29,333 bases of DNA from a virus, in the IMG/VR virus record IMGVR_UViG_3300011116_000947, positions 1-29,333 of that record; one strand, 5' to 3'. Both the position numbers and the translations under genes were made by a program. Below the pieces are notes generated by a model that did no database searches, was not told where the DNA came from, and saw nothing but the letters and a program-made list of their open reading frames with translations. Every line of letters begins with the position of its first letter. Within the stretch, counting starts at the first letter, position 1. Below are positions 2,827 through 17,250 of this stretch, in pieces.

Positions 2827-3287
2827 CCGACCAGCACAAGACCTTCCGCGTCCTTCAACACCAAGCGACCGTTATGCGCCGGCAACGGCTCAGCCTCGGA
2901 CACCGCTTGGATAAGGCGCTAAGGCAAGCGAAGCTGCTCACCGCTCAGCGTGGGGCGAGCATGGAGCGCCGCGCCCGGTCAGCGGAGAACATGAGCATCG
3001 GCCCAGGTGGGGATCCGTCCTTACTTTACGAGCCCGGTAAGGAGAACCCTTACGACGCTTTCAGCTTCCGCGCCACCGTCCTCATTGAGCTGCTGGAACG
3101 GGAGGTGGATGCTCACCGCACCGCCCCCGTGTTTGGGGATGCCGCACTAGAAACCCAGGAGGAGCGGGATCGAAGGCTGCTCGGGTACGTGGAGCGCGGC
3201 CTAGCCCCGGAGGTAATCAACCTTCTTGACCCTGCTCAGGGCGGCGTCAGGGCGATTCGTCAAGCGTTGAGGAGACTAAGTGACTAG
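2823..3287 (+). CDS. basic helical hypothetical protein
   Basis: 154 residues from a GTG overlapping the previous stop; the 3' end overlaps the next GTG by 8 nt. The N-terminal half is rich in Arg/Gln/Lys (TVMRRQRLSLGHRLDKALRQ), the middle has a turn-rich linker (GPGGDPSLLYEPGKENPYD), and the C-terminal half is amphipathic helix (ATVLIELLEREVDAHRTAP). I see no catalytic motif, cysteine pair or membrane segment. It sits between SSB-associated genes and a zinc-finger regulator, so a DNA-related role is plausible only by context. Confidence 0.65.
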   Translation: MTDQHKTFRVLQHQATVMRRQRLSLGHRLDKALRQAKLLTAQRGASMERRARSAENMSIGPGGDPSLLYEPGKENPYDAFSFRATVLIELLEREVDAHRTAPVFGDAALETQEERDRRLLGYVERGLAPEVINLLDPAQGGVRAIRQALRRLSD

Positions 3288-3702
3288 AACCTGCTCGGCT
3301 TGCGGGAAAGACAAGCCTTTGACTACCAACAATTTCTATCGGCGGGGGCAGGGGTATCGCCGGCAGTGTATTTCGTGTGTCAGGAATCGTGCTGGTTCGA
3401 CAACCAAGACGATTGCGGGTGGTGGCCGGCTGCCTATCGGCCCGTTCCGTGACTGGATGGAACGCAAGCTCGCCTACTACGAGGGCAGTGTGGAGCTTCT
3501 GGCGCAGGCTACGGGCCTGCCCGACCGTCAGGTTAGGCGTGTGCTTAGGGAGGCTGACAGCGTGGCCCTGGACACTGTGGACAGGGCGCTGATAAACGAG
3601 GGTTCGACCCCGCTTTGGGCTCTGGATTATTCGGAGGAGGATTTCCAGCGAGCGGCGCATGAGGTCAGTAGGCAGCGGGGCAAGAGGAAGGTGGCAGTGT
3701 GA
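3280..3702 (+). CDS. zinc-finger plus helix-turn-helix DNA-binding protein
   Basis: 140 residues from a GTG. The N-terminus TCSACGKDKPLTTNNFYRRG followed by CISC gives a CxxC...CxxC zinc ribbon at about residues 4-34. From family knowledge this treble-clef-like CxxC-KPLxxxxFYRR-CxxC unit occurs in phage DNA-binding and HNH-like proteins, but no HNH catalytic residues follow. From residue 50 (LPIGPFRDWMERKLAYYEGS) a helix-turn-helix is apparent: ELLAQATGLPDRQVRRVLRE as the helix pair, then LDTVDRALINEGS. It is probably a transcriptional regulator encoded at the end of the early block. The same PFRDWL...GLxxRQxRRxL organisation is seen in other phage regulators. Confidence 0.7.
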   Translation: MTRTCSACGKDKPLTTNNFYRRGQGYRRQCISCVRNRAGSTTKTIAGGGRLPIGPFRDWMERKLAYYEGSVELLAQATGLPDRQVRRVLREADSVALDTVDRALINEGSTPLWALDYSEEDFQRAAHEVSRQRGKRKVAV

Positions 3703-3775: not shown

Positions 3776-4282
3776 ATGGAACTGGAAGCGATTGTTAGCC
3801 GCGACTACGACCACGACACGGTTGATATGGCGTTGTTGCAGCTTGTCTTGAATGACTACAACGTGAGTAAGACCTGCCGCGACCTGGAAGCTCACGCGGG
3901 TATCAAGATTCCGCGTAAAACTCTTTCGCAGTGGAAGGATCGTTACCCTCGCCGGCTTCAATTTCACGCAACGCAATCTGCCCGAGAATTGGAGGAGCGG
4001 ATTGTCACGAAGCAGCGGGCTATCGCTTCCGCCGCCCTAGATGTGGTGCATGAAGCGATTGAGAAGGAGGCCGTGAGGGTGAAAGCCGGCGACGTTAGGG
4101 ATATGAGCGCCGCCGCCAGGAACATGGCGACCACTTCCGCCATCGCCACGGACAAGCTGCTCGCTATGACGGGCCGACCTTCCGCCATTGTCCAGCATGA
4201 ACGTAAGCCTGAGCAGATCATTGAGCGCCTGAAAGAGCTGGGCGTGGTTGAGGGAACCGCTGAGGAGGTCAGTGATGAATGA
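3776..4282 (+). CDS. terS: terminase small subunit (probable)
   Basis: 168 residues with AGGAGA ahead of the ATG. The N-terminal third contains a helix-turn-helix (DMALLQLVLNDYNVSKTCRD, then IPRKTLSQWKDRYP), as expected for the DNA-recognition domain of phage small terminases. The rest is helical (EERIVTKQRAIASAALDVVH) and ends with AARNMATTSAIATDKLLAMT-GRP and a REPEQIIERLKELG-like tail, a pattern typical of actinophage small terminases, where the helical core oligomerises. It would recognise the packaging site and regulate TerL. It lies 5.8 kb upstream of terL with a leftward operon between, which is unusual. A general HTH transcription factor is the alternative. Confidence 0.65.
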   Translation: MELEAIVSRDYDHDTVDMALLQLVLNDYNVSKTCRDLEAHAGIKIPRKTLSQWKDRYPRRLQFHATQSARELEERIVTKQRAIASAALDVVHEAIEKEAVRVKAGDVRDMSAAARNMATTSAIATDKLLAMTGRPSAIVQHERKPEQIIERLKELGVVEGTAEEVSDE

Positions 4283-4451
4283 TGAGGAGCGCCGCGACTG
4301 GCTGCGGCATAACTATTTGGCTCGCCGTCCTTCCGCCTGGGGTCGAAGCGTTATCCCGGTCGGCCACAAGGTCAGGGCGGGGCTCGGGTATCCGCCTACG
4401 TCGAAGCTGATGCCTTCGCTGGGTCGTCCGTGGACTGAACTCGGGCGCTGA
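4275..4451 (+). CDS. small basic hypothetical protein
   Basis: 58 residues from the ATG at 4275, which overlaps the terS stop by 8 nt and has GAGGAGG about 6 nt upstream. The sequence (MNDEERRDWLRHNYLARRPS..., VGHKVRAGLGYPPTSKLMPS) is basic and turn-rich with no recognised domain. It is the last rightward gene of the early block; two hairpins follow within 35 nt. Confidence 0.55.
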   Translation: MNDEERRDWLRHNYLARRPSAWGRSVIPVGHKVRAGLGYPPTSKLMPSLGRPWTELGR

Positions 4452-4523: not shown

Positions 4524-4604
4524 CTACTGCCAGATGATCCGCACTAGGCAGTATCCGATTGCTCCCCATAGGAATATGAGGAGGTAGGCGTTAGCGGCGC
4601 TCAT
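4524..4604 (-). CDS. 26-residue membrane peptide
   Basis: Last gene of the leftward operon. The ATG overlaps the stop of the preceding gene (ATGA), with the GGAAGGTGG of the operon repeat acting as a plausible ribosome-binding site 5 nt upstream. The product starts MSAANAYLLIFLWGAIGYCL and is a single hydrophobic helix with a short C-terminal tail. A longer same-frame reading from 4820 would translate an Arg/Gly-rich leader that overlaps the true 55-residue gene in another frame, so it is rejected. Function unknown. Confidence 0.5.
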   Translation of the reverse strand: MSAANAYLLIFLWGAIGYCLVRIIWQ

Positions 4605-4768
4605 GCGACCACCTTCCGCTTCTGCATCGCCGCCTCCACCCTTCTCGCGGCGGCGCCGGCTTCGTGAATGTTCACGTAGGGGCCAACCTTCCGCCCCGCG
4701 TGAGTGAGCCAGTAGCGCGTCGTCTGCACCCCTGGCCGGACGGTTACGTGCTCGCGGGTGATTCTCAT
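4601..4768 (-). CDS. small basic hypothetical protein
   Basis: 55 residues, with ATG and TGA overlaps (ATGA) on both sides. The sequence begins MRITREHVTVRPGVQTTRYW and continues LTHAGRKVGPYVNIHEAGAA before a Lys/Arg-rich helix ending RKVVA. It looks like a small beta-hairpin plus helix. Two copies of the operon repeat fall inside it (as GRKV and KRKV codons). No family recognised; it is too short for simple ORF thresholds but fits perfectly into the overlapping chain. Confidence 0.6.
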   Translation of the reverse strand: MRITREHVTVRPGVQTTRYWLTHAGRKVGPYVNIHEAGAAARRVEAAMQKRKVVA

Positions 4769-5004
4769 ACGGGATCACCGTTCCCGAGCCAGAACGTCCA
4801 GACAATTGCGCCCTCACCATCGTCCAGGTGTTCGATATCCCAGTTGGGGATCAGTTCACCTACCGCGTCGGCAATATGCCGGTCTGCCTCCGGCACAAAG
4901 AAGCACACTCGCGCCTCCTGGTCGTTCATCTCCCAGCCCATCGCTTCCGCGAACGCGAACGCTCGCTTCATCGTTGGGGTAACGGTGCGGTCATGGTTTC
5001 TCAT
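4765..5004 (-). CDS. acidic small hypothetical protein
   Basis: 79 residues from an ATG that overlaps the upstream stop (ATGA) and has GGCGGAAGGTGG 4 nt before it. The product is acidic: MKRAFAFAEAMGWEMNDQEA, CFFVPEADRHIADAVGELIP, then DDGEGAIVWTFWLGNGDPV. An N-terminal helix followed by beta strands suggests a small alpha/beta fold. No catalytic motif. The acidity would fit a DNA-mimic or binding partner, but that is only speculation. Confidence 0.65.
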   Translation of the reverse strand: MRNHDRTVTPTMKRAFAFAEAMGWEMNDQEARVCFFVPEADRHIADAVGELIPNWDIEHLDDGEGAIVWTFWLGNGDPV

Positions 5005-5192
5005 GCCGCCACCTTCCGCCGCTCCTGCACGATCTCGTCGGTGCTTGTGTCGGTGACGTACATCGTGTCACCTTCCTTGAGCATCGGGGCTATCCGGTTT
5101 ACTACCCGGTACATGGCGGGCTCGTCCTGCGCCCACTCCTCGTACGGGGGTTCGCCGGGGTCGTCGGTGAATACTTCGATCAGGTACGTCAT
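5001..5192 (-). CDS. acidic small hypothetical protein
   Basis: 63 residues. I chose the ATG at 5192 because AGGAGGCTAGG lies directly before it; the alternative at 5264 would read through the upstream 28-residue gene. The product starts MTYLIEVFTDDPGEPPYEEW and continues AQDEPAMYRVVNRIAPMLKE before VTDTSTDEIVQERRKVAA. It has an N-terminal strand, an acidic loop and a helix. It overlaps the next gene by 4 nt. No family recognised. Confidence 0.65.
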   Translation of the reverse strand: MTYLIEVFTDDPGEPPYEEWAQDEPAMYRVVNRIAPMLKEGDTMYVTDTSTDEIVQERRKVAA

Positions 5193-5194
5193 TC

Positions 5195-5281
5195 CTAGCC
5201 TCCTATCCTGGTTATCACTATTGCCGCGAAGGGAATGGCCGCGATGAGTAGCGGCACAATCCATTCGTGACTGTCCTTCAT
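5195..5281 (-). CDS. 28-residue single-helix membrane peptide
   Basis: The ATG overlaps the stop of the 152-residue gene (ATGA). The product is MKDSHEWIVPLLIAAIPFAA followed by IVITRIGG: a short polar N-terminus and one hydrophobic helix. Its last codons (AGGATAGGAGGCTAG) contain the Shine-Dalgarno of the next gene, whose ATG begins 2 nt after the stop, so translation is probably coupled. Function unknown. Confidence 0.55.
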   Translation of the reverse strand: MKDSHEWIVPLLIAAIPFAAIVITRIGG

Positions 5282-5736
5282 GCGGGCAAGACCTCCCGAA
5301 CCTCTTGCCCGAGGTAGTAGTCCAGGCGCATAGCTTCTATGGCCTCTTTACTCACATCGGTCCAAGCGTCCGGGTTTGCCCACGGGTTGTCCTCATGGCC
5401 CGCGTCGCCCTCGTCGTGGTAGTCGCCCACGATTGCGATGCGATCACCGGCCCACCTTCCGACTACCTCATTCATTAGGTAGTCCTCGCGGCCCGTAACT
5501 GGCACCGGGCGGTCGTCATAGCCCGGACCCCAATACGCGAACGCCTCATTCCAGGGGTGAAGGTCGCCCCCGCCCCTTCCGTTAGGCCCGTTAGTGGCCG
5601 CCAGAAGTACGGCAAGACCGGCCATTACACCGTTGCCGCTAGGCGCAAACTCCAAGAGCTTGAGCCCATCGCCAAACGTGGTCGGCTTCAGATACTCGCG
5701 CCGATCCAGATTACATATGTAGTGATACTGCCCCAT
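5278..5736 (-). CDS. conserved protein of the MGQYHY-NLDRREYL type
   Basis: 152 residues from the ATG at 5736, preceded by AAAGGAGG at 8 nt; an in-frame upstream start at 5796 is less likely because it would overlap a Cys-pair gene. The N-terminus MGQYHYICNLDRREYLKPTT followed by FGDGLKLLEF is the hallmark of a family of uncharacterised proteins that I recall from actinobacteria and their phages. Further conserved-looking parts are WAGDRIAIVGDYHDEGD and the C-terminal YLGQEVREVLP. No membrane segment, and no catalytic triad I can name. Family membership is moderately sure; function unknown. Confidence 0.7.
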   Translation of the reverse strand: MGQYHYICNLDRREYLKPTTFGDGLKLLEFAPSGNGVMAGLAVLLAATNGPNGRGGGDLHPWNEAFAYWGPGYDDRPVPVTGREDYLMNEVVGRWAGDRIAIVGDYHDEGDAGHEDNPWANPDAWTDVSKEAIEAMRLDYYLGQEVREVLPA

Positions 5737-5897
5737 TACCTGCCTCCTTTGATAAAGAGCGGGAGCTGCGGCTGCCTGTCCCGGCACTCGTAGCACCGCC
5801 CGGTTTCATCTACTAGCTGCGGCGATATGCCGCAGGTACGACACTTGGATACCCCCGCCCGCTGGCGGCTTGTGACGACTGGCTTAGACGCCTGCAT
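5736..5897 (-). CDS. small zinc-ribbon protein
   Basis: 53 residues. The ATG at 5897 lies 14 nt inside the preceding gene, and the stop overlaps the next ATG (TAATG). The sequence has C-x2-C-x12-C-x2-C (CRTC at 19-22 and CYEC at 35-38) with the intervening GISPQLVDETGR, a typical zinc-knuckle ribbon. The basic N-terminus could contact nucleic acid. Its tail RQPQLPLFIKGGR carries the Shine-Dalgarno for the next gene. Role unknown; one of several Cys-pair mini-proteins in this operon. Confidence 0.6.
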   Translation of the reverse strand: MQASKPVVTSRQRAGVSKCRTCGISPQLVDETGRCYECRDRQPQLPLFIKGGR

Positions 5898-6111
5898 GGC
5901 TGCGCCACCTTTCATTCTGTTCCAGCAGCTCGGCGTACTCCTGGCAGTCAGCGAGGGTGAGAAACGTGCCTAGCGGTTTCTCGCCCCCGTAGTCCTGACG
6001 GCGCAGGTGCCATTTATCTCCGCGCAGACTTGCGATAAAGCGGTTGTCGGGCGACTCGTATATGCCGGCCTGCACCTTCCGCCACCTCTGGCTTGACTTG
6101 TAGCGGTTCAT
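5884..6111 (-). CDS. small basic hypothetical protein
   Basis: 75 residues from the ATG at 6111, which overlaps the upstream stop (TAATG). A longer reading from 6222 gives an Arg-rich leader overlapping the upstream gene and is rejected. The product begins MNRYKSSQRWRKVQAGIYES and continues DNRFIASLRGDKWHLRRQDY, then a helix (TLADCQEYAELLEQNERW). The first half resembles a three-stranded beta-sheet (AGIYESxDxRFxAxxRGDxWxLR) as seen in many small phage proteins. No assigned function. Confidence 0.65.
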   Translation of the reverse strand: MNRYKSSQRWRKVQAGIYESPDNRFIASLRGDKWHLRRQDYGGEKPLGTFLTLADCQEYAELLEQNERWRSHAGV

Positions 6112-6311
6112 TAGTCCGGCTCCCCGGCAAGCCATATGCCGTATTCGACTTTCTGGCAGAACCCGCACTCGTCGCCGGCTTCCAGCGTCCGGCCCTGCCC
6201 GTCGCAGTGTTCGCCGCTGCAAACCTCGGAGCCTTCGCTACCTTCCGCGATCCGCTTGGCGATCCGGTCGTCAAGCTCGCAAGCGGCATCCATCCAGTCG
6301 GGACGGTTCAT
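6111..6311 (-). CDS. small Cys-rich (zinc-binding) protein
   Basis: 66 residues from the ATG at 6311, overlapping the upstream stop (ATGA). The N-terminal part MNRPDWMDAACELDDRIAKR is helical. The C-terminal half has VCSGEHC and DECGFC with an acidic loop between, so four cysteines plus a histidine can bind zinc. It follows the 267-residue protein, which has its own zinc module, and precedes two more small proteins in a chain of overlaps. Function unknown. Confidence 0.6.
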   Translation of the reverse strand: MNRPDWMDAACELDDRIAKRIAEGSEGSEVCSGEHCDGQGRTLEAGDECGFCQKVEYGIWLAGEPD

Positions 6312-7111
6312 ACCGCCACCCCCGTAGTGATCCAGGTGTCCGGCAGGGTCTGGCCCATATCCTGAGCCCACTCCAGTACCTTCCGCCCCTCGTCCACGTA
6401 ATCGTCGTACAGAGCCCGTAGCTGCGACTCAGCTTCCTTCAGAGTGTCCTTGTAGCCGATATACCCGCCGACACTTTCGACAATCTCTCCGTCAGCGTCG
6501 TAACTGACGATGTAGTAGCACTCGTCCTCTACCCACTGCTGGAACGTGCCTGCCTCTGCCAGCAGTGACTTAGCGATCCGATCCGCGCTCCAGTCCTCGC
6601 AGCCGACTTCCTTCCGGGTTTCCGGCGTGTCGAATAGGTAGAGATTGTCTGAGGCGTCGTGCTTATCGTCCGGTCCCATCGGTCGGCCCCGGTAAAGACG
6701 CGACCCGCTGGAGCCGTGGTCACTAAACTGGAGCGGGATAACCGCCCGCGCCCCGTACTCCCGCTGGAAGTAGGTGAACGGTGCGATAGGCACCTGCCCG
6801 GTTCCCCGGCAGGTGCCGCACTCCTCGTCGTCACCTTCCCCGACCGCGAGCCACCCGTCACCGTCGCAACCCGAGCACTCGTCCTCCAACTCCCACTCCA
6901 TGCTCAGCTCTGAGTCGTATCCGAGCCGGTAGTTGATTACGTCACTGTCACTGTCCGCGACTAGCTGCCCGAGGTTTGACCATTCGCGGGGATTGAAAAA
7001 CTCCGCGTCCTGCTCCTGGCAAACCTCAACCCGGAACCTTCCGAGCTTCATTACCTCCACGGCGGGGTACTCGCCCGTCATGGTTTCGATCCGTTCACCT
7101 TCCGCCTTCAT
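6308..7111 (-). CDS. conserved phage protein with DnaJ-like zinc module
   Basis: 267 residues; the ATG at 7111 has GGAGGCAGG directly upstream. Residues around 36-55 (DAEFFNPREWSNLGQLVADS) and the YRLGYDSE segment match a widespread phage/plasmid family whose members start with a PREWDNLGTM-type motif and also carry an S-(D/G)HS-like segment (FSDHGSSGS). Specific to this protein is an inserted CxxCxGxG pair (CSGCDGDG at 79-86 and CGTCRGTG at 98-105), as in the DnaJ zinc finger. The C-terminal region (ECYYIVSYDADGEIVESVGG ... YKDTLKEAESQLRALYDDYV) is also typical of that family. The family has no established function. It is the first gene after the promoter at 7140-7168. Confidence 0.75.
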   Translation of the reverse strand: MKAEGERIETMTGEYPAVEVMKLGRFRVEVCQEQDAEFFNPREWSNLGQLVADSDSDVINYRLGYDSELSMEWELEDECSGCDGDGWLAVGEGDDEECGTCRGTGQVPIAPFTYFQREYGARAVIPLQFSDHGSSGSRLYRGRPMGPDDKHDASDNLYLFDTPETRKEVGCEDWSADRIAKSLLAEAGTFQQWVEDECYYIVSYDADGEIVESVGGYIGYKDTLKEAESQLRALYDDYVDEGRKVLEWAQDMGQTLPDTWITTGVAV

Positions 7112-7139
7112 ACCTGCCTCCAATCGTTAGGGTTCTGCT

Positions 7140-7168
7140 CTTTTACACGACCGCATCGGTCTAGTCAA
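7140..7168 (-). promoter_or_regulatory. sigma70-like leftward promoter with palindrome in spacer
   Basis: On the minus strand, TTGACT (7168-7163), a 17-nt spacer and TAAAAG (7145-7140); the start site should be near 7133, about 20 nt before the ATG at 7111. The spacer contains GACCG-CAT-CGGTC (7149-7161), a perfect 5-3-5 inverted repeat suited to a repressor dimer. The octamer GTCTAGTC (7159-7166) also occurs at the other leftward promoter. Confidence 0.55.
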
Positions 7169-7180
7169 GTGACGACTACC

Positions 7181-7750
7181 TCAAAACGGGATATCCGCAT
7201 CGGGCCTTGCAATCTGCCCGACCTTCACGCGCTCGGGCTCCCTCACCTTCCGCCCCCTCCTGGCCGGCTTATCCTTAGCCAGTCCGTTACACCGCTCCAC
7301 CTCCGGGGAGAATGGCGCGGCGTGAAAGGTTCCCCGGCTGCCATCGGCAAGCCTGCCGTTTACTCTCCCGCAGTGGCGGCAGTACCACTCGTCGGGGTCT
7401 AGGTGCTCGGGCATAGGCTCCTCGCAACCCCCGCACCATTCCCTGGCGGGCGCAATCTGCCGCAGCTCGCGCTCCCCTTCCGCCTCCTGATCCTCAATAT
7501 AGACCGGATGCTGGCGTAGTAGGTGCGGCGCTAGGCGCTCGCAGTCCTCTACGTTCGATGGCAGCACCCTTCCGCCGCAATCCGGGCAGGCCAGCGCGGC
7601 ACTTTCCCCGCAGAGCCCTTCCGCCCTGGCCGGCGTAGCGTTCACTACTAGCGACCCGTAAACGCCGCAGCGTTCGCATTCCAATCGAACCTGCGGGCGA
7701 CCGGGTTTCACGTATCGGGCGCTCTTTGGCAGCGCAGCGCCCCTAGCCAT
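7181..7750 (-). CDS. multi-zinc-ribbon protein with SSB-tail-like C-terminus
   Basis: 189 residues; ATG at 7750 with GGAAGGGGGG ahead of it. It has three CxxC pairs: CERC and CPDC (about residues 24-58), then CGGC and CRHC (about 107-125), so probably two zinc ribbons, plus a basic RRGRKVREPERVKVG stretch. The final residues are ARPDADIPF. A terminal acidic-DIPF is the signature by which bacterial SSB docks on its partner proteins; here it sits on a different protein, while the phage SSB lacks it. A nucleic-acid-binding role linked to replication or repair is inferred. It follows a 41-residue membrane peptide and precedes the palindromic promoter. No enzymatic motif. Confidence 0.65.
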   Translation of the reverse strand: MARGAALPKSARYVKPGRPQVRLECERCGVYGSLVVNATPARAEGLCGESAALACPDCGGRVLPSNVEDCERLAPHLLRQHPVYIEDQEAEGERELRQIAPAREWCGGCEEPMPEHLDPDEWYCRHCGRVNGRLADGSRGTFHAAPFSPEVERCNGLAKDKPARRGRKVREPERVKVGQIARPDADIPF

Positions 7751-7868
7751 CCTGGCCCCCCTTCCGCCATTCCCGATTGGCCTTCCACGTTCCCCCCGCC
7801 AGTCCGGCGAGGTAGAGAACTACCGCCGCCGCCAGCAGGTAACCGGCGACAATCACTACCGCTTCCAT
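7743..7868 (-). CDS. 41-residue membrane protein
   Basis: The ATG at 7868 follows GGGGGCTGGGAAT, and the stop lies 8 nt inside the next gene. The product MEAVVIVAGYLLAAAVVLYL continues AGLAGGTWKANREW and a basic tail: one hydrophobic helix with a charged cytoplasmic end. The operon repeat CGGAAGG falls in the tail codons and doubles as part of the next gene's ribosome-binding region. Function unknown. Confidence 0.6.
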   Translation of the reverse strand: MEAVVIVAGYLLAAAVVLYLAGLAGGTWKANREWRKGGQDG

Positions 7869-7891
7869 ATTCCCAGCCCCCAATAGGTAGA

Positions 7892-7918
7892 GAGCCCCCG
7901 CCACTAGGGCGAGGGCTC
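7892..7918 (-). terminator. hairpin after the 108-residue gene
   Basis: An 11-bp stem GAGCCCCCGCC / GGCGAGGGCTC with one mismatch and loop ACTAG, 10 nt past the stop of the leftward gene at 7928. No strong U-tract follows, so it may attenuate transcription or stabilise the mRNA between the first three leftward genes and the rest of the operon. Confidence 0.5.
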
Positions 7919-7927
7919 ACGTAATGG

Positions 7928-8254
7928 TTAGTCCGATTCGACGGCGACGGAACCGAACCGTTCCGCGCTACGGATAGCCAGCTCGAACCGCATAGCGCCG
8001 ACCAGCTCGCGCTTAGACGTGAGGGTTGTGATGTCCCTGGCGGCGGTGTAGGTCTGCTCCTCCCCGTTACGTGGCGGACTATCGGCGCAGTGGGCCTCAA
8101 TCCGCCATAGCCCCCCGAACTCCTCGCGCAGATACACCGCGCCGTCCCGGCGGGGATCGGTTAGCGGCCAGTCCTCATCGGACACCCGCCACCCGTGAAC
8201 ATTCGCAAAGTGAGCGAACACTTCGCGCAGTGTCTTTTCTGTGATCCGTTCCAT
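7928..8254 (-). CDS. hypothetical protein, small alpha/beta
   Basis: 108 residues with GGAGGTTAGGA just before the ATG. The N-terminal helix (ITEKTLREVFAHFANVHGWR) is followed by DPRRDGAVYLREEFGGLWRI and a strand-rich part, then a C-terminal helix (SKRELVGAMRFELAIRSAER). The layout (helix, GWxVSDED, hydrophobic strands, helix) resembles small phage proteins of unknown function. No cysteine pairs and no membrane segment. It lies between two hairpin regions, so its mRNA may be separately processed. Confidence 0.65.
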   Translation of the reverse strand: MERITEKTLREVFAHFANVHGWRVSDEDWPLTDPRRDGAVYLREEFGGLWRIEAHCADSPPRNGEEQTYTAARDITTLTSKRELVGAMRFELAIRSAERFGSVAVESD

Positions 8255-8274
8255 TCCTAACCTCCATTCGTCGC

Positions 8275-8319
8275 CCCGCCTTATTGCGGGAGAGCGCGCC
8301 GGGGAATTGCACCCCGGCG
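8275..8319. terminator. two hairpins in an 82-nt intergenic gap
   Basis: CGCCGGGG / CCCCGGCG (8297-8304 and 8312-8319, loop AATTGCA) is a perfect 8-bp stem. CCCGC / GCGGG (8275-8279 and 8286-8290) forms a second one. They sit between the genes at 8337-8525 and 7928-8254. No U-tract is visible on either strand, so the role (terminator, processing site or attenuator) is undecided. Confidence 0.5.
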
Positions 8320-8336
8320 ATAGCCACTAGGCCGCG

Positions 8337-8525
8337 CTATTTCTTTTGCCCTGGATCCTGGCCCCGAAAAACCGCAACATTGTCATGCGGAAACGGCACC
8401 CCCTGAGCCTTCCCGTACCGGACGGCCTCTCTTCGTGTCGGGAAGGTCAAAACCTCGCCCTCGTCGTTTCTCAGCGGCGACGGCACCGGGTAAGTAGGCC
8501 ACGCGACTACGTAGCGGCGGCTCAT
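8337..8525 (-). CDS. small hypothetical protein
   Basis: 62 residues from the ATG at 8525, overlapping the stop of the upstream gene (ATGA); a same-frame start at 8594 would give a Gly-rich leader and is rejected. The product MSRRYVVAWPTYPVPSPLRN continues EGEVLTFPTRREAVRYGKAQ and ends with a basic tail. The arrangement of strands and a helix (TRREAVRYGKA) resembles proteins with a short beta-beta-alpha unit. No known family. Confidence 0.6.
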   Translation of the reverse strand: MSRRYVVAWPTYPVPSPLRNDEGEVLTFPTRREAVRYGKAQGVPFPHDNVAVFRGQDPGQKK

Positions 8526-8770
8526 GCTGCACCCCCGCCACTCACCTGCACAACCCGACAGGAATAGTCCCCCGCCTCCCGGCGAGCGCGGCAATCCGCC
8601 ACCGCCCGGTCATAATCGCCGGCAAGATACAACCGCCCGACCGTGTCGCCCGCGTCCCGCCAATAACACTGCACCGCGTAATCGGTCCCGGTTAGCGGGT
8701 TACGGGACATGAGCACGTAACGGACACTGTGCTCATGTCGCCGCTCACTTTCACAAACTGACACCTTCAT
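8522..8770 (-). CDS. small hypothetical protein, first leftward gene
   Basis: 82 residues; CTAGGAGGCTAGGAAT precedes the ATG. The sequence MKVSVCESERRHEHSVRYVL continues LTGTDYAVQCYWRDAGDTVG, RLYLAGDYDRAVADCRARRE and SCRVVQVSGGG. Alternating strands with a central helix (DYDRAVADCRARRE) suggest a compact alpha/beta fold. Three cysteines are scattered rather than paired. It is the promoter-proximal gene of the leftward operon, about 35 nt downstream of the predicted start site. Function unknown. Confidence 0.65.
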   Translation of the reverse strand: MKVSVCESERRHEHSVRYVLMSRNPLTGTDYAVQCYWRDAGDTVGRLYLAGDYDRAVADCRARREAGDYSCRVVQVSGGGAA

Positions 8771-8811: not shown

Positions 8812-8841
8812 TTTATACCACGCCCAAACAATGTTTGTCTA
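8812..8841 (-). promoter_or_regulatory. strong sigma70-like leftward promoter with palindrome
   Basis: On the minus strand, TAGACA (8841-8836), 18 nt, TATAAA (8817-8812), each one mismatch from consensus. A perfect 13-nt palindrome CAAACA-A-TGTTTG (8825-8837) fills the spacer and touches the -35 box, so a bound dimer would block RNA polymerase. The GTCTAGTC octamer (8837-8844) is shared with the promoter at 7140-7168. The element CGCGTTTATAC that holds the -10 box recurs at 9050-9060. Confidence 0.65.
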
Positions 8842-9396: not shown

Positions 9397-9672
9397 ATGG
9401 ATTCGCGTTCTGTTGCCGCTGCGGCGGTTAAGAAAAATCTTGGGCCTGATCCTTCGATGGGTCGGAAGGTTGAGCTGCTTAGGCGGCTTGTTTCGATGCG
9501 TCAGGAGCGTAAGGGGCCGAAGGCAACTACGAATCCTCCGAGGCGTGGGGGGTATGGGCCGCGTGGCCCGGTGACGCCGGGGAAGCCGACTCGTTTGCCG
9601 CGTCGGGATCGGATGCCGGCTCGGTTTAACGATTTGCCGGGGTATAACTTTGGCCCGCCGAGGGGGATGTGA
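9397..9672 (+). CDS. basic, Pro/Gly-rich small protein
   Basis: 91 residues; the ATG directly follows the previous TAG, with GAGGAAG as ribosome site. The first half is helical (KVELLRRLVSMRQERKGPKA). The rest is basic and turn-rich (NPPRRGGYGPRGPVTPGKPT, RLPRRDRMPARFNDLPGYNF) and likely disordered. No family recognised. Low complexity and a strong positive charge would suit contact with DNA or with the capsid. It overlaps the next start (TGATG). Confidence 0.6.
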   Translation: MDSRSVAAAAVKKNLGPDPSMGRKVELLRRLVSMRQERKGPKATTNPPRRGGYGPRGPVTPGKPTRLPRRDRMPARFNDLPGYNFGPPRGM

Positions 9673-10117: not shown

Positions 10118-11689
10118 GTGCAGGTCAGTGAGGGGGCGCTTGAGAAGCTGACCCCGGAGGCCCGTGAGGAGGCTGAGCGGCTTCTTCAGGAGCTTGACAA
10201 TCGGATTGAAGGTAATCCGCTTTACAAGGTTCGCGCTGATAATGAGCAGCAGGTGGCGTTCTGGAATGCTCAGACCCGCATTATCGCGGCGTTTGCGGGC
10301 AACAGGTTCGGTAAGACCACTGCTCTGCTGGTGAGGACGATTGTGGAGTGCCTGGACCCTGAGTGGGTTCCTGAGTGGATGATGGAGTTCAAGAAGTGGA
10401 CTCCTGGCGTGAACACTGATTATCCGGGTACGAAGTGCCGGCTGGTGTGTCCGTCCTTCCAGGTGCTTGAAACGGTGATTTTGCCGGAGCTGCGGTTGTG
10501 GTGTCCTCCGAAGGCATTGAAGGGCGGGTCGTTCGCTAAGGCTTACCACAAGCAGCTTGGGATGCTTCAGTTCGCTAACGGCTCGTGGATTGAGTTCAAG
10601 ACCTACGTGCAGGATCCCTCAATGTTTGCGGGTTCTTCGATGCACCTTGTCGGCTATGACGAGCCGCCGCCGTGGGAGATTCGCCGCGAGTGCAAGGTTC
10701 GTTTGGCGCAGTACGACGGCTTTGAGATGTTCGCCATGACTCCCTTGACGACGAACACGACTTGGGTTCGCCGGGAGATCTACAAGAATCGTGAGAGCCC
10801 GGATATTACGGTCATTCGCGGTTCGATTCACGATAACCCGACGCTTTCTAAGGAGGGTGTCGCGGCGGCCCTGGAAGCTCAGCCTGATGTGTGGCGCAGG
10901 GCCGTTGAGTTCGGTGACTTCATTGATATTGGAGGTTTGGCTTATCCAGAGTTTGAGAAGTGCGTTACTCCCGGCCCGTATCCACCTAACGCTAAGGGAC
11001 GGCAGGGTGGGTGGACGCCGTGGTACACCAGTCAGTCAGGGAAGTGGTCAGGGAACGAGTCTGCTGCTAACCGGCAGGTGTGGGATGTGGTTGTGGGGAT
11101 TGACCCTGGAATCCGAAACGCGGCAATTGTCTGGGTTGGGTTCGATAAGGACAATGTGGCCTACGTCTTTGACGAGGTACTGCTTCAGGATCTAACCCCG
11201 GTTGAGTACGCGGAGGCGATTAAGCGCACGAACAAGAAGTGGGGTATCCGCGAGTGCATTTACGTCATTGACCCTGCTTCCCGGCAGAGGGCGCAGGTCA
11301 ATTCGGACACGGTGCAGTCGGAGCTGATTCGGCAGGGGATCCCAACCCAGAACGGGCAAAACAACTTTGAGGCCGGGTTCTTCCAGGTTAAGCAGCGCAT
11401 TGAGCAGGGGCGGTTGAAGGTAAACCCGGAGTGTCGGGGGCTTCGCTCCGAGGCTGATGATTACGCGCTGGAGTCCCGTGAGGACGGGGTAATCAAGCCA
11501 ATCAAGGGTAACGATCACCGTCTGGATGCTTTGCGTTACGCGCTGATGGCTCGCGCCTGGAAGCCGCTGGAGGAGATGGAGGAGCCCCGGCAGCAGCTCG
11601 GGTGGATCCCTGACACCTACGACCCGGAGTGGGAGAACGAGATGTTGGAGTACCAGATTCAGTCCGGGCCGATGGGTGAGTTCGGGTGA
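10118..11689 (+). CDS. terL: terminase large subunit (packaging ATPase-nuclease)
   Basis: 523 residues from a GTG directly after the mini-protein stop. N-terminal ATPase: Walker A GNRFGKTT (61-68), Walker B HLVGYDEPPP with D181/E182, and a coupling-like MTPLTTNTTW segment. C-terminal RNase H-like nuclease: VVVGIDPGIRNAAIV (D329 as first metal ligand), FDEVLL (352-357) and GNDHRLDALRYAL (acidic residues 466-470). It cuts concatemeric DNA and drives it into the prohead through the portal using ATP. The usual partner gene, terS, is not adjacent but at 3776-4282. Complete length and all key residues are present. Confidence 0.95.
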   Translation: MQVSEGALEKLTPEAREEAERLLQELDNRIEGNPLYKVRADNEQQVAFWNAQTRIIAAFAGNRFGKTTALLVRTIVECLDPEWVPEWMMEFKKWTPGVNTDYPGTKCRLVCPSFQVLETVILPELRLWCPPKALKGGSFAKAYHKQLGMLQFANGSWIEFKTYVQDPSMFAGSSMHLVGYDEPPPWEIRRECKVRLAQYDGFEMFAMTPLTTNTTWVRREIYKNRESPDITVIRGSIHDNPTLSKEGVAAALEAQPDVWRRAVEFGDFIDIGGLAYPEFEKCVTPGPYPPNAKGRQGGWTPWYTSQSGKWSGNESAANRQVWDVVVGIDPGIRNAAIVWVGFDKDNVAYVFDEVLLQDLTPVEYAEAIKRTNKKWGIRECIYVIDPASRQRAQVNSDTVQSELIRQGIPTQNGQNNFEAGFFQVKQRIEQGRLKVNPECRGLRSEADDYALESREDGVIKPIKGNDHRLDALRYALMARAWKPLEEMEEPRQQLGWIPDTYDPEWENEMLEYQIQSGPMGEFG

Positions 11690-11913: not shown

Positions 11914-12281
11914 TGGCGGTTGTGCCAAAGGATGATTCACTGGTTGTTGTTGAGCGTTGCGAGATGCCCCCTGGGCAATGCATCGCCACGATGAGCCATG
12001 ATGATCCGAAGGGGTTTGTGGACACGCTCCTGACCCCCGCTGTGGTTGATCCGAGGGTGTATCTGTCGGTGAGCTGGATTGAGGAGATTGCTCGCAAACT
12101 GGGCATGGAGTACGCCGATGAGGCTAAGACCGCTGCTCTTGAAGCGCGGGTTGAGCAGCTTGAAGCTGAACTGGTTGAGGCTGACAGGCGCATTGAGGCG
12201 ATTGACGTTATGGAGTCGGCTGGGTTCACGGCGCGTAAGCGTCCGGGCCGCAAGCCGGCGAAACCGAAAGCGAAGGCTTGA
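11913..12281 (+). CDS. coiled-coil protein with basic Ala/Lys/Pro tail
   Basis: 122 residues. The N-terminal half is a mixed alpha/beta region (MAVVPKDDSLVVVERCEMPP, then DPKGFVDTLLTPAVVDPRVY). Residues 70-100 form a coiled coil (KTAALEARVEQLEAELVEAD). The tail is RKRPGRKPAKPKAKA, basic and probably disordered. It overlaps the next TTG-started gene by 4 nt. No catalytic motif; a head-assembly accessory role is possible by position. Confidence 0.6.
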   Translation: MAVVPKDDSLVVVERCEMPPGQCIATMSHDDPKGFVDTLLTPAVVDPRVYLSVSWIEEIARKLGMEYADEAKTAALEARVEQLEAELVEADRRIEAIDVMESAGFTARKRPGRKPAKPKAKA

Positions 12282-12535
12282 TCTATCTATTTGCTGGGCT
12301 CGCCCTGGCTCTTGCTGTTATCGCGTATCAGCAGTTCACGTTCTCCCGCCTGATTGAGCGGGAGCGTGACGCTGCCGCCGCCGACAGGGCTTCGCTGCTT
12401 CAGCGTATTCAGGATCCGCACACCGCTAACGCCGTTCAGGCCGCTGAGAGCCTGGACGTAACTGTGCCACGGCATTTCGTGGAGTTCGACGACGATGAGG
12501 ATTTCACGATGGCTAAAGAAATGCTGGGTGACTGA
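12278..12535 (+). CDS. small membrane-anchored protein upstream of portal
   Basis: 85 residues from a TTG overlapping the previous stop (TTGA). One N-terminal hydrophobic helix (MIYLFAGLALALAVIAYQQF) is followed by a coiled-coil-like stretch (RLIERERDAAAADRASLLQR) and an acidic C-terminal part (FVEFDDDEDFTMAKEMLGD). Proteins with this N-terminal anchor plus charged tail are often encoded just before the portal in actinophages, but their role is unknown. The TTG start is supported by the overlap; there is no other start that keeps the membrane helix. Confidence 0.6.
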   Translation: MIYLFAGLALALAVIAYQQFTFSRLIERERDAAAADRASLLQRIQDPHTANAVQAAESLDVTVPRHFVEFDDDEDFTMAKEMLGD

Positions 12536-14532
12536 TGGCCGTCATTGACGACTTGAAGAAGGCGATTGGGCTCAATCAGGACGTTCCGGGCGCTATCACG
12601 GAGCGCATTGAGCGCGGCAAGAAGCAAATTAACGACCGGGCTCCCGAGCGTAATGAGTGCCTTAGCTTCTGGCGCGGCAACCAGTACGTCTATCGCAACA
12701 AGGAGAACTGGCTGGTTAAGCAGGGTGTTCTCTTTGGGGAGGGCGGCAAGCCCCGCCATCGTGTCCGTACGACCCGCAACCTGATTGGGCCGATTGTCCG
12801 TCAGGAGGTCGCGTACGCCACGCAGCGCGTCCCGTCCTACCAGATCAACCCTTCAACCTCAGACCCTGATGATGTGTCAGCTGCCGCTGTCGCCCAGAAG
12901 GTTGCTTACTACGGTTTCGATGAGTGGCAGGTTCGCACCGTAACCGAGCAGGTGGTGACGTACGCCGTCGTCGCTGATGAAGGGTTCGCTTGGCCGTATT
13001 GGGATCAGTCGGTTCCCCCGTTCGTCAAGGATGAGAACGGTCAGGTCGTCGGCCTGGGTGATGTGCGGATTGAGGTTCTTGGCCCGAATGAGGTTGGTTG
13101 GGAGCCGGGTGTGCGCTTTGAGGATGCCCGCTGGTACATCGTGCGTAGAGCCATGAGCGGTGAGCAGGTCAAGTCGCTGCCCGGTTTCATCCCCGGCACG
13201 AAGGTCACGCCGGATGCCTCCACGGAGTACGTGGTTGGGGAGCATAAGGACAAGCGTGATCTTGTGATGGTCACTGACTATCTGGAGCGTCCTTGCGCGG
13301 AGTACCCGGAGGGCCGGCGCTACTGCATCGCTAACGGCAAGATCATTACTCCCCCGGAGGCTTACCCGTTTAGCGACGGTAAGGGCGGGATCGTGGATGA
13401 GCCGGTGCTGCACAAGCTCTCCTACATTCTGGACCCGGACAGTGATCGTGACCAGGGGCTCGTAAGGCATCTGCTGGACGCGCAGCGCACGATTAACGAC
13501 GCGACCAATAAGCAGATTGAGTGGAAGAACATGGCGCTGATGCCGCAGGTGTTCGCTCCCCTGGGGGCGTTCCCGAAGCGTCAGCGGCTCACCGATCAGC
13601 CCGGTGCGGTGTTCGTCTACAACCCCGTCAATGGCCTGAAGCCCGAGTGGCGGCCCACCCCGCCGATCCCGCCGGAGTTGTCGCAGCTCAAAAGTGAGGC
13701 GCTGGGGGATATGCAGCGCATCGCTTCGCAGAATGACACGCCGGCTGATGCTTCCGGTCGCGCCCTGTCGGTGCTGATTGAGCGCGACAACGCTGCTCGT
13801 CAAGCGTTCATTCAGCGCCTAGCGGAGTTCCATAGTCGCCTGATGCGTCACTGCCTGACACTTGTTGCTCAGCACTACTCCGAACCTCGTCTTATCCATA
13901 TCAACGGCAGGTTTGGCCCGGAGTCAATCAAGGACTTCACGGGCGCTCAGCTTCGCTCGCAGGTGGACGTAACGGTGTTCCCTGAAAGCATTGAGCCCCG
14001 TACCCGTCAGGCTCTTGAGCAGCGCGTGATGGCTTACGCGGACAGGGGTTGGGTGCAGCCTGAGAAGGCGATGGCCGCTATTGAGCAGGGAACCGCCGCT
14101 GATGTGGTGGACTCCTACGAGCTTGACGTTGCCAGAGCTAACCGCGTGATTCAGCGGATTCTCGCTGGGCCGGAAGTGTTCCTCGCTGAGCCCCTTCAGG
14201 CCGGCCCGGACGGAACCGATGTGCCGTCGTGGATGCCTCGGGCGGGGATTGACAACCTTGCGGTGCATCGTTCGATCTTTCAGGACTTCGCTAAGACGCA
14301 GGAGTTTGAGCTTGCCGCTGATGCGGTACGTGAGGCAATCCTGCTGTACCTCCAGGGGCTTGACTGGCTTGAAGCTCAGGAGCAGCAGAAGGCGATGATG
14401 CAGCAGGCGATGCAGGCGCAGCAGCTTGGCATGACGAACGCCGCTAAGCCGCAGTCGCCGCAAATGCCCGATCAGCGTATGCCCGGTGGTCAAACCGACC
14501 AGCAGGGCGGGGGTCCGGGCGGCGCGATTTGA
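12535..14532 (+). CDS. portal protein
   Basis: 665 residues, with the start overlapping the previous TGA by one base (TGATG). Typical portal features: an N-terminal clip/wing region with YRNKENW and RTTRNLIGPIVRQEVAYATQ, a long alpha/beta crown, DPDSDRDQGLVRHLLDAQRT ahead of NDATNKQIEW (stem helix region), PEWRPTPPIPPELSQLKSEA, and a Gln/Met-rich C-terminus (MMQQAMQAQQLG). The protein forms the dodecameric vertex channel through which TerL packages DNA and to which the tail attaches. The length and the Q-rich barrel-like end fit podovirus-sized portals. A 150-nt gap with a hairpin follows, so expression may change after this gene. Confidence 0.85.
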   Translation: MAVIDDLKKAIGLNQDVPGAITERIERGKKQINDRAPERNECLSFWRGNQYVYRNKENWLVKQGVLFGEGGKPRHRVRTTRNLIGPIVRQEVAYATQRVPSYQINPSTSDPDDVSAAAVAQKVAYYGFDEWQVRTVTEQVVTYAVVADEGFAWPYWDQSVPPFVKDENGQVVGLGDVRIEVLGPNEVGWEPGVRFEDARWYIVRRAMSGEQVKSLPGFIPGTKVTPDASTEYVVGEHKDKRDLVMVTDYLERPCAEYPEGRRYCIANGKIITPPEAYPFSDGKGGIVDEPVLHKLSYILDPDSDRDQGLVRHLLDAQRTINDATNKQIEWKNMALMPQVFAPLGAFPKRQRLTDQPGAVFVYNPVNGLKPEWRPTPPIPPELSQLKSEALGDMQRIASQNDTPADASGRALSVLIERDNAARQAFIQRLAEFHSRLMRHCLTLVAQHYSEPRLIHINGRFGPESIKDFTGAQLRSQVDVTVFPESIEPRTRQALEQRVMAYADRGWVQPEKAMAAIEQGTAADVVDSYELDVARANRVIQRILAGPEVFLAEPLQAGPDGTDVPSWMPRAGIDNLAVHRSIFQDFAKTQEFELAADAVREAILLYLQGLDWLEAQEQQKAMMQQAMQAQQLGMTNAAKPQSPQMPDQRMPGGQTDQQGGGPGGAI

Positions 14533-14682
14533 GCCAGTAGGCCCGCGTTCATAAATCCCCCTCGGCAGACCGTAAAGCCCCGATAGGCGCTGCCCTAAGA
14601 CTTTCCCCATTGTGGGGTAAGGCCGCGTGAGCGGTTCATTGGCGACAACCCTTCGTGGATCGCCGTCATCTAAGGAGAACAC
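14533..14682 (+). promoter_or_regulatory. intergenic leader before scaffold gene
   Basis: A 150-nt gap, the largest in the virion block. It contains CCCCA-TTG-TGGGG (14605-14617) and ends in TAAGGAGAACAC before ATG 14683. A CATAAAT at 14551-14557 lies 16 nt after TTTGAG, a weak promoter candidate. I see no terminator with a U-tract. Confidence 0.4.
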
Positions 14683-15420
14683 ATGGATACCGAACACCCC
14701 TCTGAGGATTCGGTCAATGACGCACCCCCGGTAAGTGGCGAGGGGGCAAGCGAATCATTCACTGAGGTCGGTAGTGACTTGCCGCCGGAACTTGAGTCCC
14801 GGTACAAGTCAATGCAGGCGGATTACACCCGCAAGACCCAGGAGTTGTCTGAGCTTCGTCGTGAAGCTGAGGCCGCTACTGAGTTTTTCAACGCGCTCAG
14901 TGATGAGGATATGCGCGAGGACGCGCTTCGCCAGCTCGCAGAGTACGGGGGGCCAGATGTTTTGGCTGCCGCTGCGGGCTTTGAGGTCGCAGACGAGGAC
15001 AACCTGGAGCCTGACTTCTCGGAGTTCGATGAGAAGCCGGCTGCGGATCCTCGCATAGACCAGTTGGCCGCCGAATGGGAGTCCTATAAGGAAGCCCAGC
15101 AGGAGCAGGCCATCTTGCAGGAGATTGAGTCATTCACTGATGGTGAAATGACTCGCCTCGGAGTTGAGGATGAAGCCGAGCAACGTGCGGTCCTGTCTAT
15201 CGCAGCGACGATGGACCTGGATCGTGAGGGCTTCCCGCAGCTTGAGGCCGCTAAGCAGATGCTGGATGAGCTTTACGGCTCTAAGCAGAAGGAGTGGATC
15301 GAAAGCAAGAAGGCTCCCCGGCAGCCGCTTCAGGGTGAGCAGGCCGAAGAAGGGTTCGATTTCAGCGATGCTGACGAACGCCGGAAGCGGATTGCGGCCC
15401 TGATTGAAGCCAACGAGTAA
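14683..15420 (+). CDS. scaffolding protein
   Basis: 245 residues with a clear AAGGAG site. It is acidic and helical: a disordered N-terminus, LPPELESRYKSMQADYTRKT followed by QELSELRREAEAAT as a coiled coil, then long helices (AAEWESYKEAQQEQ and EAAKQMLDELYGSKQKEW). The C-terminal FDFSDADERRKRIAALIEAN is a basic helix-loop unit of the kind that docks on coat protein. Position between portal and major capsid protein and the helical, Ala/Glu-rich composition are typical of tailed-phage scaffolds, which are absent from the mature virion. Confidence 0.8.
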   Translation: MDTEHPSEDSVNDAPPVSGEGASESFTEVGSDLPPELESRYKSMQADYTRKTQELSELRREAEAATEFFNALSDEDMREDALRQLAEYGGPDVLAAAAGFEVADEDNLEPDFSEFDEKPAADPRIDQLAAEWESYKEAQQEQAILQEIESFTDGEMTRLGVEDEAEQRAVLSIAATMDLDREGFPQLEAAKQMLDELYGSKQKEWIESKKAPRQPLQGEQAEEGFDFSDADERRKRIAALIEANE

Positions 15421-15459
15421 TCCCAATACGGGATCACTCGTCATTTCTGTCAATTACTC

Positions 15460-15476
15460 AAGTACCGGAGGTACTT
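15460..15476 (+). promoter_or_regulatory. hairpin enclosing the Shine-Dalgarno of the capsid gene
   Basis: AAGTACC-GGA-GGTACTT is a perfect 7-bp inverted repeat with a 3-nt loop. The ribosome-binding GGAGG (15467-15471) lies in the loop and the right arm, 8 nt before the ATG at 15480. If the hairpin forms, it would limit initiation; a regulator or an mRNA rearrangement could release it. Confidence 0.5.
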
Positions 15477-15479
15477 TAG

Positions 15480-16688: not shown

Positions 16689-16694
16689 TTCATC

Positions 16695-16736
16695 GTGGCC
16701 CCCTGCCTTCGGGTGGGGGGCCACTTTGTTTTCTTC
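16695..16736 (+). terminator. rho-independent terminator after the capsid gene
   Basis: 13-bp stem GTGGCCCCCTGCC / GGTGGGGGGCCAC with two G-U wobble pairs and a TTCG tetraloop (16708-16711), followed by TTTGTTTTCTT. This is a canonical strong terminator, limiting transcription of the connector and tail genes relative to the capsid gene. Confidence 0.9.
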
Positions 16737-16752
16737 TCAAGGAGGATTTGCA

Positions 16753-17250
16753 GTGACGAGCCTATGGGTGCCGCCTACGGCACAGATAGACCATGAACTT
16801 GACAGCCAGCTTGAACGCCTCGGGCGCAGGCATGAATGGCTGAAATATTTTGACCGCGAGCTTCAGGCGATGGATCCGCGCTTGTCGCTTGTGAAGGCAA
16901 GCGAGGGTGCTACGGAGCCTGGGCTAACGCCGGGTTTCTGGCATATCCGGCGCGATAACGAGCAGACAATGGCGACCTACTACCCGCTTCGCGGTGAGAA
17001 CGGGGAGTTTGTTGAGCCCGGTTCGGAGCATCTGGAGATGATGCGCCGTAATGACCTAACCAAGCCTGAGAACTTCAAGCGGCTTGTGGAGCAGGGTGAG
17101 GCTCACTTGAAGCGCATTGAGGATCAGCGCAAGGAACGCGCTGAGGAGCGTCAGGTGGAGTTCGCTGAGCGGTTTGAGTCAGCGCAGCGGGCGCATGTGT
17201 CAATGAAGGACGGCTGGACTAACAGCGTGAAAGGCAAGAAAACAGCGTGA
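16753..17250 (+). CDS. hypothetical structural protein
   Basis: 165 residues from the GTG at 16753, chosen because AAGGAGGATTTGCA precedes it; the upstream start at 16726 lies within the terminator. The sequence is helical and charged (QIDHELDSQLERLGRRHEWL, DRELQAMDPRLSLV, then LKRIEDQRKERAEERQVEFA). The middle, ATEPGLTPGFWHIRRDNEQT followed by MATYYPLRGENGEFVEPG, is a beta-rich segment. Proteins of this layout are encoded between capsid and connector genes in actinophages, function unresolved. Overlaps the next GTG by 4 nt. Confidence 0.6.
   Translation: MTSLWVPPTAQIDHELDSQLERLGRRHEWLKYFDRELQAMDPRLSLVKASEGATEPGLTPGFWHIRRDNEQTMATYYPLRGENGEFVEPGSEHLEMMRRNDLTKPENFKRLVEQGEAHLKRIEDQRKERAEERQVEFAERFESAQRAHVSMKDGWTNSVKGKKTA

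What the first reader, a model, noticed from the sequence alone, without database searches (positions are those of the whole stretch)
4612..7766. Strand-specific, frame-independent short motif saturating the leftward operon
CGGAAGG occurs 16 times in 3.15 kb on the sense strand of the leftward operon, whereas roughly 0.2-0.5 copies would be expected by chance per strand. Copies are read in all three codon frames: RKV-type (4612, 4687, 5012, 6075, 6379, 6610, 7246, 7760), GR-type (4 copies: 5455, 5575, 7037, 7568) and AEG-type (4 copies: 6241, 7098, 7476, 7617). Protein conservation therefore cannot explain it; selection must act on DNA or RNA. I saw it only a few times elsewhere (for example plus-strand CCTTCCG at 2842, 4180 and 4329). 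Candidates are a polar DNA motif such as Chi- or KOPS-like elements, binding sites for a phage DNA-binding protein that silences or marks the operon, an RNA-binding-protein site on the leftward mRNA, or internal Shine-Dalgarno-like pausing sites. The motif also precedes at least three start codons (4604, 5004, 7750).
Basis: partly seen in the sequence, partly recalled or inferred. Interest (0 to 1): 0.78.

Follow-up and report, generated by a model that had tools for sequence, protein, structure and literature searches.

The report
Repeated strand-specific word in phage genes
A bacterial virus and a diverged relative both pack the exact seven-letter word CGGAAGG onto the message strand of the same group of small genes, far more often than their proteins or codon habits require, so it is probably a recognition site in the message or its DNA; what reads it is unknown.

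Summary
CGGAAGG occurs 19 times on the minus strand and twice on the plus strand of this 29.3-kb phage fragment. Sixteen copies lie in 4612-7766, on the sense strand of a leftward small-gene operon. Expected numbers are 0.8 (order-1 Markov) or 3.5-5.2 (same proteins, shuffled synonymous codons; maximum 10 in 5000). All three frames are in excess, and one-mismatch neighbours are not. In 543 4-kb stretches of phage DNA it is the strongest word that is neither single-frame nor a repeat.
A diverged relative (24-kb IMG/VR contig, same operon, 33-69% protein identity) has the same excess: 9 copies against 2.5. Only 3 of 14 site positions in orthologous genes are shared, so copies come and go while density is kept. 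Where the local protein is unchanged, 6 of 6 sites keep the exact word (background 36%).
Shine-Dalgarno pausing, codon bias, protein repeats, SAS-type start motifs and G-quadruplexes fit poorly.
My best reading is a site read on the transcribed copy (sense RNA or exposed non-template strand) by an unidentified factor regulating this operon. A stoperator-like duplex DNA site is the main rival. Strand-specific selection is well supported; the mechanism is inferred. No host, reader protein or third operon-bearing relative was found.

The parts
4524..8770 (-). leftward operon of about 14 small genes that carries the word on its sense strand
   Evidence: ORFs; no confident family match for any tested product; divergent from the terminase-large gene (10118-11689 +)
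8812..8841 (-). probable host-type promoter of the operon (TAGACA-N18-TATAAA, read by eye)
   Evidence: sequence; the consensus scan did not report it; the relative has TTGACA-N17-GATAGT at the equivalent place
7760..7766 (-). CGGAAGG site 1, 9 nt before the ATG at 7750
7617..7623 (-). CGGAAGG site 2 (AEG frame)
7568..7574 (-). CGGAAGG site 3 (GR frame)
7476..7482 (-). CGGAAGG site 4 (AEG frame), shared with the relative
7246..7252 (-). CGGAAGG site 5 (RKV frame), shared with the relative
7098..7104 (-). CGGAAGG site 6 (AEG frame)
7037..7043 (-). CGGAAGG site 7 (GR frame)
6610..6616 (-). CGGAAGG site 8 (RKE)
6379..6385 (-). CGGAAGG site 9 (RKV)
6241..6247 (-). CGGAAGG site 10 (AEG frame)
6075..6081 (-). 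CGGAAGG site 11 (RKV)
5575..5581 (-). CGGAAGG site 12 (GR frame)
5455..5461 (-). CGGAAGG site 13 (GR frame)
5012..5018 (-). CGGAAGG site 14, 7 nt before the ATG at 5004, shared with the relative
4687..4693 (-). CGGAAGG site 15 (RKV)
4612..4618 (-). CGGAAGG site 16, 7 nt before the ATG at 4604
4329..4335 (-). copy antisense to a rightward ORF, exact in the relative
4178..4184 (-). copy antisense to the putative small-terminase gene, exact in the relative
2842..2848 (-). copy antisense to the rightward 154-aa gene, exact in the relative although one amino acid there changed
9463..9469 (+). copy on the sense strand of a rightward gene, exact in the relative; the relative has two more sense copies just upstream

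Best explanation
CGGAAGG, with preferred context ggCGGAAGG[T/G], is a selected, strand-specific recognition site carried many times by one phage transcription unit. I think it is read on the transcribed copy, either in the sense RNA or as the exposed non-template strand in the transcription bubble, by a sequence-specific phage or host factor, and that many sites per transcript together control elongation, stability or translation of this probably early operon, for example to switch it off. Shown: strong enrichment, strand and operon specificity, exactness, independence of reading frame, maintained density with positional turnover in a diverged relative.
For: All 16 operon copies are sense, none antisense. 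The copies across the divergent promoter region are also sense to their own rightward genes (9463 in the window; 12985, 13138 and 13267 in the reverse-complemented relative), so orientation follows transcription there rather than one DNA strand. Excess over synonymous shuffles in every frame, 8/4/4 against 2.76/0.60/0.10. One-mismatch words 11 against 14.4 expected, so recognition is strict. Relative G001: 9 against 2.5 in operon genes; 3 of 14 positions shared. Six of 6 sites with unchanged local protein keep the exact word, background 0.36, p about 0.002. Sites are slightly more unpaired in predicted RNA than composition-matched words (0.51 vs 0.44, p 0.017 in the window; p 0.13 in the relative).
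Against: Three conserved copies (2842, 4178, 4329) are antisense to rightward genes; they need leftward read-through, or a DNA-level function, or coincidence. No site in the first 0.8-1.0 kb of either operon (joint chance about 0.0015 for uniform placement), which a simple shut-off signal would not predict. No candidate RNA-binding protein, RNase or elongation factor was recognised among the products tested, though the record is an incomplete genome. The RNA accessibility signal is weak.
Confidence: 0.45

Rival explanations
1. Stoperator-like duplex DNA sites: a phage repressor or nucleoid protein binds the asymmetric word as a monomer and blocks or slows RNA polymerase only when oriented with transcription.
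For: Stoperators of Cluster A mycobacteriophages are asymmetric, 20-30 per genome, oriented with transcription, conserved as a set, and lose function when reversed (PMC6550527; PMC9283540). A strict short word fits a DNA-binding protein. Conserved minus-strand copies outside the operon fit a DNA-level role.
Against: Stoperators are 13-14 bp, scattered through the genome and mostly in short intergenic gaps; here the core is 7-8 bp, nearly all copies are inside genes, and they sit in one operon. No repressor was recognised in the fragment. No copy near the operon promoter.
Confidence: 0.22
2. A polar DNA element read during recombination, replication, packaging or DNA translocation (Chi-like, KOPS-like, or pac-like, since the operon lies between the small and large terminase genes).
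For: Strand asymmetry 19:2; several copies antisense to rightward genes including the putative small-terminase gene; strict exact word.
Against: Confined to one operon of about 4 kb rather than spread over the genome; opposite-strand copies in rightward small genes of the relative; pac-type boxes normally cover a few hundred bases (general knowledge).
Confidence: 0.1
3. Codon usage and protein composition of a G-rich, Arg/Lys/Glu-rich operon produce the word without selection on nucleic acid.
For: Proteins plus codon usage already give 3.5-5.2 copies; half the copies are CGG-AAG codon pairs.
Against: 16 exceeds all 5000 shuffles; the rarest frame has 4 against 0.10; it is the top word against its own synonymous shuffle; the relative repeats the excess.
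Confidence: 0.07
4. Internal Shine-Dalgarno-like or start-associated sequences (SAS) acting in translation.
For: Three copies lie 7-9 nt before starts; AGGTGA, which can pair with the 16S tail, is also enriched.
Against: GGAGG, AGGAGG, AAGGAG and GAGGTG are near or below expectation in the same genes; 13 of 16 sites are not at starts; the essential CGG part does not pair with the anti-SD when AGGTGA does (general knowledge of the 16S tail).
Confidence: 0.05
5. Remnants of a small mobile or recombination-linker sequence, or two-tier G-quadruplexes.
For: Same orientation throughout; GG tracts in ggCGGAAGGtgg.
Against: Decaying copies would leave one-mismatch neighbours, which are not in excess; flanks are unrelated (flank identity 0.35); G-quadruplex loops should vary, yet C and AA are invariant and the outer GG is not.
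Confidence: 0.06

Closest known systems
Stoperators of Cluster A mycobacteriophages (L5, Bxb1)
   Same: asymmetric short word, many copies, oriented with transcription, conserved as a set while sequence diverges (PMC6550527, PMC9283540)
   Different: 13-14 bp, mostly intergenic, genome-wide, bound by a known repressor; here 7-8 bp, mostly inside genes in three frames, one operon, no repressor found
Start-associated sequences (SAS/ESAS) of Cluster K mycobacteriophages and Cluster EF Microbacterium phages
   Same: unusually well conserved short oriented motif in non-structural genes; unknown reader (PMC3203893, PMC7302621)
   Different: SAS sit at the ribosome-binding position and pair partly with 16S rRNA; only 3 of 16 copies here sit there
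T4 RegB sites (GGAG in early mRNAs)
   Same: short purine-rich word in early transcripts, also within some coding sequences, read on RNA (PMC3014915)
   Different: four-base word mostly in translation-initiation regions; no RegB relative recognised here; different word
ops element recognised by RfaH on the non-template strand
   Same: GGCGGTAG matches GGCGGAAG at seven of eight positions and is sense-strand specific (PMC5995543 for the mechanism)
   Different: one per operon leader (general knowledge); the flipped-out T that RfaH recognises is A here; 16 copies within genes
Oriented repeats of Microbacterium Cluster EC, EG and EI phages
   Same: repeats oriented or placed with one set of genes and retained where sequence diverges (PMC7302621)
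   Different: 18-30 bp, intergenic, upstream of starts

Membership tests
Stoperators (Cluster A mycobacteriophages) | asymmetric word in many copies oriented with transcription | tested here: met
   16 sense, 0 antisense in the operon; exceptions at 2842, 4178, 4329
Stoperators (Cluster A mycobacteriophages) | 13-14 bp consensus, mainly intergenic, across the genome | tested here: not met
   7-8 bp core, nearly all intragenic, one operon
Stoperators (Cluster A mycobacteriophages) | bound by a phage immunity repressor that stops elongation | not testable with these tools
   no repressor recognised in the fragment; no binding data
Start-associated sequences (SAS) | located at the ribosome-binding position of start codons | tested here: not met
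   3 of 16 sites
Shine-Dalgarno-like internal pausing sites | other strong anti-SD-pairing words enriched in the same genes | tested here: not met
   GGAGG 12 vs 16.7, AGGAGG 4 vs 4.5, AAGGAG 1 vs 2.6 expected; AGGTGA is enriched, 6 vs 1.4, but as part of the extended word
Chi / KOPS-type polar motif | over-represented along the genome or replichore | tested here: inconclusive
   confined to one operon in this fragment; complete genome and host not available
RegB-type mRNA cleavage sites | cleavage of early mRNA at the word by a phage RNase | not testable with these tools
   no RNA data; no RNase recognised among tested products
ops / RfaH non-template element | GGCGGTAG with the flipped-out T | tested here: not met
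   A at that position in all sites; 16 copies rather than one
Two-tier G-quadruplex | four GG tracts with variable loops | tested here: not met
   loop bases invariant, outer GG not

The most novel reading that the evidence does not exclude
The phage marks one transcription unit from within its coding sequences with a dense, exact, strand-specific 7-8-base tag that a dedicated factor reads on nascent RNA or the non-template strand. Coding capacity is bent to carry the tag, and selection keeps its density rather than its positions. I know of no described phage system that does this inside genes.
Probability: 0.3. Interest if true: 0.8.

Novelty: new variant of a known kind. Interest (0 to 1): 0.55.

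Why it matters
The repeated phage regulatory sites I compared with lie between genes or at starts. A short exact word kept at high density inside genes, in all frames, with turnover of positions, would show that a phage transcript can carry a distributed address label written over its proteins. It gives a concrete handle (an exact word, two genomes, 16 and 9-12 sites) for finding a new sequence-specific RNA- or elongation-level regulator, and a general statistical recipe for finding others.

Tried and rejected
Codon usage or protein repeats: synonymous shuffles; other high-scoring words in the window, GCCTAAG, CTACGGG and CAACTGG, are protein repeats, unlike CGGAAGG. Shine-Dalgarno pausing. 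Mobile-element decay. G-quadruplex. Known RNA family: none in Rfam; no tRNA. Related phages: MCP and terminase relatives found, but only G001 carries the operon; scans with the helicase, small terminase and operon proteins found nothing else. Named phages: operon proteins have no match; capsid/terminase relatives are actinobacteriophages at 24-29% capsid identity and show no CGGAAGG excess. Host: two scans of bacterial and archaeal genomes found no relative. Structure models of two operon proteins were too poor to use (pLDDT 49 and 34), so no fold search was made.
Full report
WHAT THE RECORD IS. The window is a whole IMG/VR record of 29,333 bases, an incomplete phage genome. It holds a RecA-like ATPase and SSB, a protein that looks like a small terminase (3776-4282, +; by position and comparison; no family match), a large terminase (10118, +), portal, capsid and tail genes. 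A leftward operon of about 14 small genes (8770 to 4524, -) lies between the two terminase genes. Its products have no confident family match. The closest named relatives by capsid and terminase are Arthrobacter, Microbacterium and Cellulosimicrobium phages at 24-29% identity, so the host is probably an actinobacterium (inference).

THE OBSERVATION. CGGAAGG occurs 19 times on the minus strand and twice on the plus strand. Sixteen copies fall in 4612-7766, all sense to the operon, none antisense. It is the most over-represented 7-mer of the operon: 16 against 0.83 by an order-1 Markov model, 1.87 by order 2 and 3.0 by order 3 (the higher orders are fitted on the same sequence and absorb part of the signal).

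PROTEINS AND CODONS. Shuffling synonymous codons while keeping every protein gives means of 3.5 (pooled) and 5.2 (within gene), maximum 10 in 5000. By frame the counts are 8, 4 and 4 against 2.76, 0.60 and 0.10. CGGAAGG is the top 7-mer of the operon even against this null. About a quarter to a third of the copies could therefore be expected from coding alone; the rest could not.

SHARPNESS. The 21 one-mismatch neighbours total 11 against 14.4 expected in the window. The relative is a little looser (18 against 12.7; TGGAAGG 5, CAGAAGG 3). Beyond the core, G is preferred at the two preceding bases and T or G follows, never C. A decaying repeat or a compositional effect would leave neighbours in excess.

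RARITY. In 543 stretches of 4 kb from about 125 phage contigs, every word scoring higher than CGGAAGG is essentially a single-frame protein or triplet repeat; this one is spread over three frames with unrelated flanks and at least 49 bases between copies. Most of the contigs were fetched because they contain a pair of the word, which makes the comparison conservative for this word.

AN INDEPENDENT CASE. IMG/VR contig 3300034012_001790 (G001, 24 kb) has 95% capsid identity and the same operon with 33-69% protein identity. Its operon carries 9 copies in genes against 2.5 by synonymous shuffle and 0.8 by codon-order shuffle; as this word was fixed beforehand, no multiple-testing correction applies. 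Synonymous sites between the two phages are far diverged (0.43-0.59 identical at fourfold sites). Of 14 site positions in orthologous gene pairs (including one weakly aligned pair), 3 are shared and 11 are private. Where three codons keep the same amino acids, 6 of 6 sites keep the exact word, against 36% of other 7-mers (p about 0.002). Density is maintained while positions turn over, which is what selection on a nucleic-acid site would give.

ORIENTATION AND LAYOUT. In the relative, three copies on the opposite strand lie just across the divergent promoter region, sense to the rightward small genes; the window has one such copy at 9463. That fits orientation by transcription. Against it, 2842, 4178 and 4329 are antisense to rightward genes and are exact in the relative; leftward read-through is possible because no terminator-like site was found on the minus strand between the operon end and 2601 (a weak scan). 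Neither operon has a site in its first 0.8-1.0 kb (joint chance about 0.0015 if uniform; noticed after the fact, so indicative only).

MECHANISM. Shine-Dalgarno pausing is disfavoured, since canonical SD words are not enriched in the same genes and several of the operon's own starts use GGAGG-type sites. Start-associated sequences are excluded as a description of the set: 3 of 16 sites are at starts. G-quadruplexes are disfavoured by invariant loops. A site read on RNA or on the non-template strand accounts for strand, frame independence and confinement to one transcription unit; predicted accessibility is slightly raised. A stoperator-like duplex site accounts for the same facts less fully, because those sites are longer, genome-wide and intergenic. 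ops, which RfaH reads on the non-template strand, resembles the extended word, but its key T is A here and it is used once per operon. I commit to the RNA or non-template reading at 0.45 and to selection on a strand-specific nucleic-acid site, of whatever kind, at about 0.85.

LIMITS. Two genomes only; both fragments; no host; no expression data; gene starts predicted from sequence; no candidate reader.

Noticed in passing
L031 (Microbacterium phage Shocker NC_073470): ACCCTAA at 523, 539, 681, 722, 880, 1916, 1928, 3571 (+) and 44348, 44326, 41830, 38746, 37384, 31236 (-): A distant relative carries a different repeated word, ACCCTAA, usually TACCCTAA, oriented with transcription on both arms and mostly just upstream of start codons (14 of 15 copies). 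One copy also lies before the leftward promoter of the window (8860 -).
   Followed up: partly
window 7767-8770 and L021 11635-12440: The promoter-proximal 0.8-1.0 kb of both operons lacks the word although later genes are dense in it.
   Followed up: partly
L021 17001-18329 (-): The relative has a C5-cytosine methyltransferase gene (Pfam PF00145, 1.6e-58) next to its replication genes where none was seen in the window.
   Followed up: no
L021 around 12040-17130 (+): In and around the relative's operon, CCTTCACC (5 against 0.05) and AGGAGGCTA (4 against 0.03) are also over-represented on the sense strand; the latter looks like a Shine-Dalgarno with a fixed flank.
   Followed up: no
window 3280-3702 (+): 140-aa protein with an endonuclease-VII/HNH-like zinc-finger N-terminus and a C-terminus that may be a helix-turn-helix; a possible DNA-binding regulator.
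   Followed up: no
window 20376-21857 and 24676-25536 (+): CTACGGG and CAACTGG (collagen-like tail fibre repeats) and GCCTAAG (Pro-Lys repeats) are enriched because of protein repeats.
   Followed up: yes
L144: CTGGCCG / CCTGGCC reach 18-19 copies in 4 kb with non-repeat flanks, CTGGCCG mostly in one frame; another possible dispersed word in an unrelated phage contig.
   Followed up: no
L058, L109: Two related contigs carry 10 and 12 CGGAAGG copies on one strand against 2 and 1 on the other, at lower density; unrelated to the window as far as seen.
   Followed up: no
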